Below, piece after piece: positions 37,956 through 40,101 of a DNA stretch of 64,000 nucleotides (within the stretch, counting starts at the first letter, position 1; every line of letters starts with the position of its first letter). Made by a program: the position numbers and the translations under genes. The notes under the pieces are model-generated. The model saw nothing but the letters and a program-made list of their open reading frames with translations. It did not search any database and had not been told where the DNA came from. The DNA comes from Paraphaeosphaeria minitans (lineage: Eukaryota; Ascomycota; Dothideomycetes; Pleosporales; Didymosphaeriaceae), in NCBI GenBank assembly GCA_015832175.1, contig WJXW01000011.1, forward strand, positions 930,001 to 994,000. The letters are read 5' to 3'.

Positions 37956-39121
37956 CTACACCTCCTTCCTAGCCGCAGCACCAACGACCGTCTTCGCGGC
38001 ACTCTCAAGCCGTTTAAACCCTCCACTCTCTTTGACCCCCTGCTGCAGCACAACCATCCTCTTCTGGTCGCCCGTAGGATCCGCACTATCAGCCTCCAGA
38101 CCCCATCCCAAATACTCATTGGTATAGTTCGGCGTGAACCCCTCCCCTAGCACGCCCAGCCTCTTCCCGTAGCGCGTGACCTTGTCCCAGTCGCGGCGCA
38201 CATTCTGCAAATCCGGCGAGAAATACGCGAAGCTGCGCTCGAAGATCTTGCGGTTCGTCGGGGTGTCCATGGCGCTCTTGAAAGCGCAGAACTCGCTCCA
38301 CGCGGCGTCGGGCGAGGCCAGCACGAAGTCGGTCGCGCGCTTGCAGGCGCGCAGGAAGGCGCGGACGCGCTCGGGATTCGCGGCGAGGAAGGCGTCGTTG
38401 GCGATGTACAGGATGCTGCAGAAGCAGCAGCACCCGAGCTGCGCCAGCTCGTCGATGCGCAGCATGTGCACTTGGTCGGGCGCCCGGCCGGCCGCGGTGA
38501 GCCAGGCTTCCAGCTCCACCATCTGCACGTTCTCGAGGCCGATGCCGGCGTCGATGTCGCCGTTGATGATGCTCTTGGTGACGTTCATGCCCACGCGCAC
38601 GGCGGTGTAGTCGGTGGGCTGCATGCCGTAGTGCGCGGTGAGCTCGTCGAGCTGGATCTTGCCGAACTCGCCGACGTAGCCGATCTTCTTGCCTCTGAGC
38701 GTGGTGAAGTCGGAAGTGATGCCGCTGCTGGTGAGATACACGATGCCGGTGAAGGGCTCGTTGAGGAGGGAGCCAATGGATGTCACGGGGAAGGAGCGCG
38801 CGGCGGCGGCAAGCGTGTGGATCATGGCTTTGAAGCCGAGATCGACTTTGCCAGTGCCGATGATCTCGGTGACGTCCTGTTCAAGTCGGTCAGCGATGTG
38901 GAAGGAAGTAGATGAGAGAGGGAAGAGGTACGCTGGGATCGTTGGGCTCGAGGAGCGCGACTTGGATGCCTTCGTCCTTGAAGTAACCCTTGCTCTGGGC
39001 GAGGTAGAGGGGGGCGTGGTACGGCGTGGCGTGCCTGTCCGGCATCAGTCCTGCTCATGTAAACGACAGCATCATGTGCGACAGACCAGTTGGTCAAGAA
39101 GGTTATCTTGTCAGTAGACAT
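37956..39121 (-). CDS. NMT1: 4-amino-5-hydroxymethyl-2-methylpyrimidine phosphate synthase (thiamine synthesis)
   Basis: THI5/NMT1 makes the pyrimidine half of thiamine from PLP and its own active-site histidine, so it is a single-turnover suicide enzyme needing Fe. Model (352 aa): exons 39121-39087, 39034-38932 and 38876-37956. Splicing restores [18 protein letters not shown] and [20 protein letters not shown]. The PLP lysine Lys62 and donor histidine His66 (GFKAMIH) sit at the same numbers as in yeast Thi5, and the CCCFC iron motif is at 195-199. The C-terminus ([20 protein letters not shown]) is ordinary. Expression is very likely controlled by the TPP riboswitch in the 5'UTR intron (39366-39144). 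Called THI5 in yeast, nmt1 in fission yeast and Neurospora, thiA in Aspergillus. Confidence 0.97.
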
Positions 39122-39129
39122 GTTGGCTT

Positions 39130-39342
39130 TTATTCACGGAAAGCTAGGGAGATCAGTACGCAGAGGCGGAGATAGGGGATCAAGAAGCAGCTAGTCCTTT
39201 CGCTGGAATTATCCAGATCAAGTTTGAACGGTATGATCTCAGAACAAGCCCGTCTCCAGTCCACCGTAGCTGTCAGGAAAGGTGTGAATTCTCCGCCATG
39301 AGAGGAGAGACTGGAAACGAGGCCTGAACACCCGCCATGCAT
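39130..39342 (-). other. Upstream ORF overlapping the TPP aptamer
   Basis: The ATG at 39342 opens a 70-codon frame that runs through the whole aptamer and the predicted 3' splice site, stopping 9 nt before the NMT1 start. It exists only in transcripts that retain the intron or splice it inefficiently. In Neurospora NMT1, uORFs in TPP-bound mis-spliced mRNAs reduce translation; this frame fits that role. Confidence 0.5.
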
Positions 39343-39366
39343 GCTTCCGATTGTTCATGAGAATAC
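39144..39366 (-). other. Predicted 5'UTR intron of NMT1 carrying the riboswitch
   Basis: The donor CAG|GTATTC at 39366 and an acceptor TCCCTAG ending at 39144, with branch-like TACTGAT 8 nt upstream, delimit a 223-bp intron wholly within the 5'UTR. The aptamer lies inside. Alternative donors may exist; none was tested. Confidence 0.55.
39182..39350 (-). ncRNA. TPP riboswitch aptamer (eukaryotic, THI element)
   Basis: On the minus strand the conserved TPP-aptamer blocks occur in order. The 5' element GCGGGTGTTC is followed by a long P3 stem whose arms CAGGCCTCGTTTCCAGTC (from about 39327) and GACTGGAGACGGGCTTG (to about 39245) are complementary with G-U pairs. Then come TCTGAGATCATACC with the CTGAGA pyrimidine-sensing motif, and CTTGATCTGGATAATTCCAG plus CGAAAGGA, the pyrophosphate-sensing arm. 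P1 can form between GAAGCA (39347-39342) and TGCTTC (39189-39184). The extended P3 is typical for fungal NMT1 aptamers. In fungi TPP binding alters splicing of the surrounding intron and lowers expression. Confidence 0.93.
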
Positions 39367-40101
39367 CTGAGCTTGGCGCAACTTGACTGTGATAACCCCG
39401 ACACGCGAGGAGGAGGGGAATGATGCCCCAGTTGCTGCTTTCACGGCATCGTACCGGTTGGTGGTTGAAGCTGCGAGAAAGTTGCACGAGAAAAAGGTCG
39501 ATTGGAGTGTGGAGTTGAATTATTGTGGAATGAGTCTGAAGTTCTCATTTTATACTTCTTTTCTATCGCCGAGCATAGGTACCATGCGGGCCAGTAAATC
39601 ACTTATATGTACGTATGATTGTCATGCTGATGGTGGGGCAATGAGGGGTTCGAACCTTGTGCAGGGCCGTTCGTTGCAGTGGATCGCTTCTGATTTGTTG
39701 GTCTGGCGTTGGATGGGACCTCGATGAACGTCAGTTTAATTAATTGTTGCTTACAGGCCACTAGCCATAGAGCCGGTTGAATGAGTACCTTTGCAGGTAA
39801 CTAGTAGACTACAATGATGGTGGACAAGAGCTGTTGGCTTTTTCGTTCAATTTGATGTGCGTTGATGGGAGCGTCAGGACTGAGCGATGGCTTTAGGTGC
39901 GGTAGACCCTCATCTTTCGTAGGGATTGTTTTTCTAGAAAGATCTTTTCATGAGGCCGGTAGCTAGCTGTATTCGGAAGAGAACCTTTGAAAGTGTATAA
40001 ATGGGGTTGAAATCCAAGCGGGGAGCCACCCTTGAAGCTGACCATGTGAAGCAATGAGTGCGCTTGGATCCGAATAGGGATGTTGTAGGTAGCCGCGCGA
40101 A
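39367..40101. other. Intergenic / NMT1 promoter
   Basis: About 730 bp. No reading frame of note; holds the NMT1 promoter and leader upstream of the riboswitch intron. Confidence 0.5.

What the first reader, a model, noticed from the sequence alone, without database searches (positions are those of the whole stretch)
39144..39366. TPP riboswitch inside a 5'UTR intron of NMT1
All conserved TPP-aptamer blocks (GGGTGTTC, CTGAGA, CTTGATCTGGATAAT, CCAGCG) are visible on the minus strand, with an extended P3 of about 17 bp. The aptamer is bracketed by plausible splice sites 5' of the thiamine pyrimidine synthase. Fungal TPP riboswitches act through splicing, so this gene is probably switched off by thiamine. 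The P3 insertion is gene-specific and worth describing.
Basis: partly seen in the sequence, partly recalled or inferred. Interest (0 to 1): 0.75.

Follow-up and report, generated by a model that had tools for sequence, protein, structure and literature searches.

The report
TPP riboswitch controlling NMT1 splicing
The leader RNA of a fungal vitamin B1 gene carries a vitamin-sensing RNA switch of a known type that probably turns the gene off by changing where the RNA is spliced, and it may hide its splice site with an unusual part of the sensor.

Summary
Window 39346-39185 (minus strand) is a complete TPP aptamer upstream of NMT1/THI5, in a genome identified as Paraphaeosphaeria minitans. RF00059 scores it 49.1 bits, under the 54.3 cut-off, and misplaces the 5' arm because P3 is long (about 88 nt). 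Long P3 stems are usual in fungi, so P3 is not the novelty. This is the published Type I design, in which TPP favours the proximal donor S2 (39366), keeps the uORF and lowers expression. The unexpected part is the predicted mask on S2. Published N. crassa NMT1 uses P4-P5; here that pairing is at background level, while S2 can form 16 Watson-Crick pairs with the TPP-contacting strand (base of P3, CUGAGA, 3' side of P2). Folding favours this in NMT1 (mean pair probability 0.81), not in THI4 or NCS1. One looser control is not significant, and I had no relatives' DNA and no RNA data, so this mask stays a prediction.

The parts
39546..39554 (-). TATA-like box TATAAAATG
   Evidence: sequence; promoter role and transcript start are inference, no transcript data
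39449..39454 (-). distal 5' splice site S1 (GTACGA)
   Evidence: the same GTACGA lies upstream of the proximal donor in 3 of 3 Type-I-like leaders of this genome: NMT1, THI4, NCS1; not shown by RNA
39441..39449 (-). two-codon uORF (Met-Pro-stop) whose AUG overlaps S1; removed by S1 splicing, kept by S2 splicing
   Evidence: isoforms from an assumed start at 39520: 0 upstream ATGs after S1 splicing, 1 after S2 splicing, 5 unspliced
   Evidence: sequence; 32 nt before the P2 arm in both NMT1 and THI4, 25 nt in NCS1
39351..39367 (-). S2 strand of the proposed masking helix, GGUAUUCUCAUGAACAA (U39357 bulged)
   Evidence: 16 Watson-Crick pairs with 39247-39230; mean pair probability 0.81 in the ligand-free ensemble
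39185..39346 (-). TPP aptamer, P1 to P1'
   Evidence: RF00059 49.1 bits; model R1 73.4 bits, E 2.3e-16 over 39342-39185
39335..39346 (-). P1 5' strand (pairs with 39194-39185; 10 pairs, two single-base bulges)
   Evidence: duplex -7.6 kcal/mol; in the R1 alignment two of the five P1 pairs are non-standard
39330..39334 (-). P2 5' strand CGG(G)U (pairs with 39232-39229); middle pair G-C here, C-G in THI4 and NCS1
39309..39326 (-). 5' arm of the 17-bp extended P3 (one bulged U)
   Evidence: local fold of 39329-39242, -37.8 kcal/mol
39245..39261 (-). 3' arm of P3; its last 3 nt are shared with the masking helix
39230..39247 (-). masking strand UUGUUC-UGAGA-(UC)-AUACC: base of P3, J3-2 binding loop and 3' side of P2
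39237..39242 (-). CUGAGA, the pyrimidine-recognition motif
   Evidence: sequence; motif role from PMC5882874
39196..39222 (-). P4-P5 with L5 UAAU and J4/5 GCG (pyrophosphate recognition)
   Evidence: sequence, model alignment; roles
39144..39156 (-). branch-like site CTGAT and 3' splice site TAG
   Evidence: sequence
39087..39121 (-). NMT1 coding exon 1
38932..39034 (-). NMT1 coding exon 2
37956..38876 (-). NMT1 coding exon 3; 352-aa protein in all
   Evidence: Pfam NMT1 E 1.1e-72; THI13 and THI5 chains in the PDB, E 1.6e-143 to 9.2e-142; one locus found in the genome

Best explanation
This is a fungal TPP riboswitch in the 5'UTR intron of NMT1 that chooses between two 5' splice sites. With little TPP, the proximal donor S2 is masked by pairing with the aptamer, the distal donor S1 is used, the uORF leaves with the intron and NMT1 is made. 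With TPP, the aptamer closes, S2 is freed and used (or splicing fails), and the Met-Pro uORF, or five upstream AUGs in the unspliced RNA, stay in the message and lower translation. Shown here by sequence: the aptamer, both candidate donors, the uORF, the gene, and the complementarity. Inferred by analogy: TPP binding and the splicing outcome. Predicted by folding only: in this gene the mask on S2 is mainly the ligand-contacting strand (base of P3, CUGAGA, 3' side of P2), a strand exchange with the 5' side of P2 while most of the long P3 stays paired in both states. My confidence is 0.9 for the Type I switch and about 0.5 for this mask.
For: Aptamer: RF00059 49.1 bits; out-of-sample model 73.4 bits, E 2.3e-16. 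Gene. Layout S1-uATG-S2-aptamer-3'SS in 3 of 3 Type-I-like leaders of this genome, each with GTACGA as S1; NMT1 isoforms differ in upstream ATGs as the model needs. Mask: 16 Watson-Crick pairs; -16.3 kcal/mol in NMT1 against -5.9 (THI4) and -8.5 (NCS1) for the same segment. 6 of 1471 GTA sites of the window reach -16.3, among them S2 itself and the segment's own antisense site; 23 of 20000 random window 24-mers reach it. Mean pair probability 0.81 at 37 C, 0.84 at 25 and 20 C; expected pairs 12.9 at each of three transcript lengths; 0 of 100 shuffled S2 flanks reach that.
Against: No transcript, probing or relatives' sequence. A looser statistic (S2 -14..+20 against the whole 3' core) is not significant: 67 of 1000 shuffles do as well. 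NMT1's S2 also pairs fairly well with THI4's segments (-12.6 for P3'/J3-2/P2', -13.8 for P4-P5), and the S1 region reaches -14.8 with the aptamer's 5' arm, so energies near -14 are not special. With the aptamer forced, S2 opens only modestly (unpaired 0.25 to 0.34; S1 0.46 to 0.48). The masked ensemble is 8.3 kcal/mol more stable than the one with P2-P5 forced (-118.9 against -110.6), and the free ensemble holds almost no P1, P2 or P4-P5 (0.00, 0.01, 0.00), so switching would need TPP capture during transcription or an error in the energy model. A P4 mask is weak but not absent (-9.6, UCAGGU with ACUUGA). In THI4, S1 splicing would still leave one upstream ATG from the start I assumed.
Confidence: 0.9

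Rival explanations
1. Same Type I riboswitch, but S2 is masked by the published route, pairing of P4-P5 with the sequence at the proximal donor; the 16-pair match with J3-2/P2' is a coincidence or a side structure.
For: P4-P5 pairing is the mode reported for N. crassa NMT1 (PMC5882874). THI4 of this genome pairs S2 with P4-P5 and its neighbours in the fold (expected pairs 3.7-7.6), and UCAG|GU at the NMT1 S2 can pair ACUUGA of P4. P2' carries AUACC, complementary to any GGUAU donor, so part of the match comes free. The whole-core shuffle test is not significant (67 of 1000).
Against: In NMT1 the P4-P5 energy (-9.6) is ordinary: 576 of 1471 GTA sites do as well. Expected S2 pairs with P4-P5-P4'-P1' are 0.0 at all three lengths tried.
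Confidence: 0.4
2. An aptamer that may bind TPP but does not control splicing in this species; thiamine control, if any, is transcriptional.
For: No expression data here; diatom genes with predicted TPP aptamers were found not to respond to thiamine (PMC9544697, title, passages).
Against: The recognition motifs, both candidate donors and the uORF are present, and the same layout is kept at three genes.
Confidence: 0.06
3. The Rfam register is right: the 5' arm starts at 39277 (CAGCU/AGCUG as P1) and P3 is short.
For: RF00059 aligns this way, with a good P1 and a five-column P3 in which one pair is non-standard.
Against: It ignores the 17-bp P3 helix; the THI4/NCS1 model takes the 39334 arm at 73.4 bits, with P2 compensated against THI4 and NCS1. 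Incomplete RF00059 matches at long P3 are a reported artefact (PMC11683625).
Confidence: 0.03

Closest known systems
Neurospora crassa NMT1 TPP riboswitch (Type I of PMC5882874; original work Cheah et al. 2007, not seen, known here only through citing papers and recall)
   Same: gene, 5'UTR intron, two donors with a uORF between, aptamer between the proximal donor and the 3' splice site
   Different: reported mask is P4-P5 with the proximal donor; here P3'/J3-2/P2' is the predicted partner and P4-P5 pairing is at background level
THI4 and NCS1-permease TPP riboswitches of the same genome (L002/L005, L004/L007)
   Same: S1 GTACGA, uATG, S2, aptamer with GGUGUUC...CUGAGA; a model of these two detects NMT1
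   Different: donor context AUCAAG|GU or GUCAAG|GU, complementary to P4 CUUGAU (energies -13.1 and -14.3, themselves reached by 208 and 226 of 1471 GTA sites); weak pairing with J3-2/P2'
N. crassa NCU01977 / Type II (urea transporter family; as described in PMC5882874)
   Same: TPP aptamer controls a choice of 5' splice site by alternative pairing
   Different: uses the P1' strand and a far alpha element; the DUR3-like L003/L006 is this genome's candidate
Aspergillus oryzae thiA (Kubodera et al. 2003; seen only as cited)
   Same: TPP aptamer in a 5'UTR intron of a thiamine gene
   Different: sequence not available here; details not compared

Membership tests
TPP riboswitch aptamer (RF00059) | covariance-model match over the family cut-off | tested here: not met
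   49.1 against 54.3 bits, E 1.4e-6 in the window. All 4 matches found in this genome are under the cut-off. Long P3 is a reported cause of incomplete RF00059 matches (PMC11683625), so I weigh this test little.
TPP riboswitch aptamer (RF00059) | P1-P5 fold with a complete 5' arm | tested here: met
   model R1 from THI4+NCS1 matches over positions 1-155 at 73.4 bits, two P1 pairs non-standard in that register; own assignment P1 10, P2 4, P3 17, P4 3-4, P5 4 pairs
TPP riboswitch aptamer (RF00059) | recognition motifs CUGAGA(U), GCG in J4/5, UAAU in L5 | tested here: met
   CUGAGAU from 39242, UAAU and GCG within 39222-39196; motif roles
TPP riboswitch aptamer (RF00059) | binds TPP | not testable with these tools
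   needs in-line probing
Fungal Type I splicing riboswitch | two donors flanking a short uORF in a 5'UTR intron, aptamer, 3' splice site before the start codon | tested here: met
   S1 39454, uORF 39449-39441, S2 39366, TAG 39144, ATG 39121, by sequence only
Fungal Type I splicing riboswitch | P4-P5 complementary to the proximal donor (as reported for N. crassa NMT1) | tested here: inconclusive
   -9.6 kcal/mol, 576 of 1471 GTA sites as good; the test is weak, since THI4 and NCS1 also miss significance (208 and 226 of 1471)
Fungal Type I splicing riboswitch | thiamine shifts splicing from S1 to S2 | not testable with these tools
   no RNA data
Fungal Type II (long-distance alpha/P1') riboswitch | aptamer in a 650-900 nt internal intron of a urea-type transporter | tested here: not met
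   the NMT1 leader intron is 223 nt from S2 or 311 nt from S1 (coordinates), 5' of the coding region

The most novel reading that the evidence does not exclude
The NMT1 switch of this lineage has moved its splice-site mask from P4-P5 onto the ligand-contacting strand itself: the same CUGAGA/P2' nucleotides either grip thiamine or cover the donor, a direct competition between ligand and splice site, while THI4 in the same genome appears to keep the P4 mode (NCS1 unclear). The long P3 would then be the fixed clamp that holds the exchanging strand beside S2; against that last point, PMC8786325 states that P3 length does not interfere with gene regulation (passage).
Probability: 0.5. Interest if true: 0.5.

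Novelty: new member of a known kind. Interest (0 to 1): 0.3.

Why it matters
The switch itself is an expected member of a published class. If the mask is real, NMT1 and THI4 of one fungus would cover their proximal donors with different strands of the same aptamer. This would suggest that the sensor can be rewired to a splice site through more than one strand that closes on binding, and that ligand and donor can compete for the same nucleotides. It also gives a clear case of the standard Rfam model misplacing the 5' arm of a fungal TPP aptamer.

Tried and rejected
Rejected: the Rfam placement of the 5' arm; P3 length as a novelty; Type II for NMT1 (intron length). A second NMT1 copy for comparison: the search found only the window locus.

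Led nowhere: exact-pattern scans for the fungal aptamer in viral contigs (2 patterns, 0 hits) and prokaryote genomes (1 pattern, 0 hits), so I obtained no fungal DNA outside this genome. A pattern search of the whole genome found 3 places, the three Type-I-like aptamers already known. No repeats of 12 nt or more were reported for 39100-39600. Searches for a P2 or J3-2 mask or for the NMT1 mechanism listed no paper that describes such a mask in its title or the start of its abstract; searches on this fungus and on Dothideomycetes (0 papers) gave nothing on its riboswitches by title. Cheah 2007 was not looked up; Li & Breaker 2013 is not held. So absence from print is not shown. The alternative energy sets gave three identical values, so I count them as one set at most and rely on the default set at three temperatures. 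The two-sequence alignment behind model R1 does not line up the NCS1 P3 by structure.

Full report
What is there. The minus strand of window 39346-39185 carries every block of a TPP aptamer. RF00059 finds nothing at its gathering cut-off. At relaxed threshold it gives 49.1 bits, E 1.1e-8 on the 501-nt stretch and 1.4e-6 on the whole window, aligned with a 5' arm inside the P3 insert. P2 is CGG(G)U/ACCG here and CCG(G)U/ACGG in THI4 and NCS1, so its middle pair changes on both sides. P1 has 10 pairs with two single bulges, P3 17 pairs. RF00059 is reported to give incomplete matches when P3 exceeds about 60 nt (PMC11683625, section 8). Folding energy alone is no evidence: 19 of 200 shuffles of the 161-nt region fold as well.

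Which gene and organism. The three coding exons 39121-39087, 39034-38932 and 38876-37956 join to 352 aa, Pfam NMT1 E 1.1e-72, PDB chains THI13 and THI5 E 1.6e-143 to 9.2e-142. The best public match is 100% identical, named from Paraphaeosphaeria minitans, on a contig of 1,931,927 bases, the length of contig C11 that holds the window. The species is a pleosporalean ascomycete. One NMT1 locus was found in the genome and 4 RF00059 matches, 0 of them over the cut-off: NMT1; THI4 (Pfam Thi4 E 6.8e-106) and an NCS1-type permease (PF02133 E 1.1e-16); and one beside an exon that matches urea-proton symporter DUR3 (E 2.7e-5), though Pfam and NCBIfam gave no family and the next exon no PDB match.

How the leader is built. 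Between a TATA-like box (39554) and the start codon (39121) lie S1 GTACGA (39454), ATGCCGTGA (39449-39441), S2 CAG|GTATTC (39366), the aptamer, CTGAT and TAG (39156-39144). THI4 and NCS1 have the same order, and GTACGA is S1 in 3 of 3. From an assumed start at 39520, S1 splicing leaves no upstream ATG in NMT1, S2 splicing leaves the Met-Pro uORF, and the unspliced RNA has five upstream ATGs; in NCS1 the counts are 0, 1, 3 and in THI4 1, 2, 6. This is the Type I plan of PMC5882874 (parts 1-4 of 7 read), in which TPP favours the proximal donor and keeps the uORF. TPP binding and the splicing shift are inferred for this species, not shown.

What masks S2. The reported partner for N. crassa NMT1 is P4-P5. 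I compared S2 (-14..+20) with three aptamer segments in each of the three switches and two of the segments with a background. P3'/J3-2/P2': NMT1 -16.3, THI4 -5.9, NCS1 -8.5 kcal/mol. P2'-to-P4: -5.9, -6.1, -7.5. P4-P5: -9.6, -13.1, -14.3. Against all 1471 GTA sites of the window the P3'/J3-2/P2' values are reached by 6 (NMT1), 1061 (THI4) and 823 (NCS1); two of the 6 are S2 itself and the antisense of the segment. The P4-P5 values are reached by 576, 208 and 226, so the P4 mode is not significant by this statistic even in the sister genes. Of 20000 random 24-mers of the window, 23 reach the NMT1 value; of the 20 printed, 5 lie on the antisense of the segment. Of the 24-mers scanned in the upstream leader the 12 best all overlap S2. 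The helix has 16 Watson-Crick pairs, 39367-39351 with 39247-39230, broken by one bulged U and one bulged UC.

Folding of the 400-nt leader. Ligand-free, the helix has mean pair probability 0.81; with the helix forced the ensemble energy is -118.9, with P2-P5 forced -110.6 kcal/mol. The probability is 0.84 at 25 and 20 C. Expected S2 pairs with the segment are 12.9 at each of three transcript lengths in NMT1 and 0.0 at each in THI4 and NCS1; 0 of 100 shuffled flanks reach the NMT1 value, the best giving 10.2. THI4 pairs S2 with P4-P5 and its neighbours (3.7-7.6 expected pairs); NCS1 is unclear (0.0-1.6). The 17 P3 pairs keep a mean probability of 0.82-0.89 in the masked or free ensemble and 0.93-1.00 with the aptamer forced.

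Against this reading. A looser test over the whole 3' core gives 67 of 1000 shuffles as good for NMT1 (184 for THI4, 332 for NCS1). NMT1's S2 scores -12.6 and -13.8 with two segments of THI4, and the S1 region -14.8 with the 5' arm of the aptamer, so moderately strong matches are common. Forcing the aptamer raises S2 exposure only from 0.25 to 0.34; the free ensemble holds almost no P1, P2 or P4-P5; and the 8.3 kcal/mol gap is large for ligand binding to overcome at equilibrium. A co-transcriptional capture of TPP has been proposed for N. crassa NMT1 (as reported in PMC7404189, passages). AUACC in P2' is complementary to donors of the form GGUAU, so part of the match comes free; the UCUCA and GAACAA parts do not. 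I obtained no fungal DNA outside this genome, so the decisive test, conservation, was not possible.

Novelty. The switch is a new member of a known kind. Long P3 is ordinary in fungi. The possible new point is a change of masking strand within one genome. Searches listed no paper with such a mask in its title or the start of its abstract. Of the papers opened I read PMC5882874 (parts 1-4 of 7) and PMC11683625 (section 8 and passages); of PMC8786325, PMC9544697, PMC10226581, PMC7404189, PMC6152003, PMC11900860, PMC10907184 and PMC5997356 passages only. The original N. crassa paper was not seen, so this is not a claim of absence from print.

Noticed in passing
L005 2125-2345 (THI4, G000 C17): THI4 leader has the same S1 GTACGA / uATG / S2 (AAG|GTAAAA) / long-P3 aptamer plan; its S2 context AUCAAG|GU matches P4 CUUGAU, and the fold pairs S2 with P4-P5 and its neighbours.
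   Followed up: partly
L007 1988-2155 (NCS1-type permease, G000 C10): Short-P3 Type-I-like switch; S2 splicing would leave a 28-codon uORF that overlaps the main start out of frame, a stronger block than in NMT1 if used.
   Followed up: partly
L006 3315-3440 minus strand (DUR3-like gene, G000 C6): Fourth TPP aptamer, just upstream of an exon matching urea-proton symporter DUR3 (E 2.7e-5; no Pfam or NCBIfam family): a candidate for the Type II long-distance mechanism. Intron ends and alpha element not mapped.
   Followed up: partly
window 37956-39121 (NMT1): The public record of this protein is named glycylpeptide N-tetradecanoyltransferase; 21 of the 120 proteins listed (of 1417 found), this one included, carry that name. 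This looks like a mix-up of nmt1 (no message in thiamine, recalled) with N-myristoyltransferase.
   Followed up: partly
L008 1500-1660 minus strand (G000 C14): U1 snRNA candidate under the Rfam cut-off (35.9 against 69.5 bits) that carries ATACTTACCT, the sequence expected at a U1 5' end (expectation recalled), on the minus strand.
   Followed up: no
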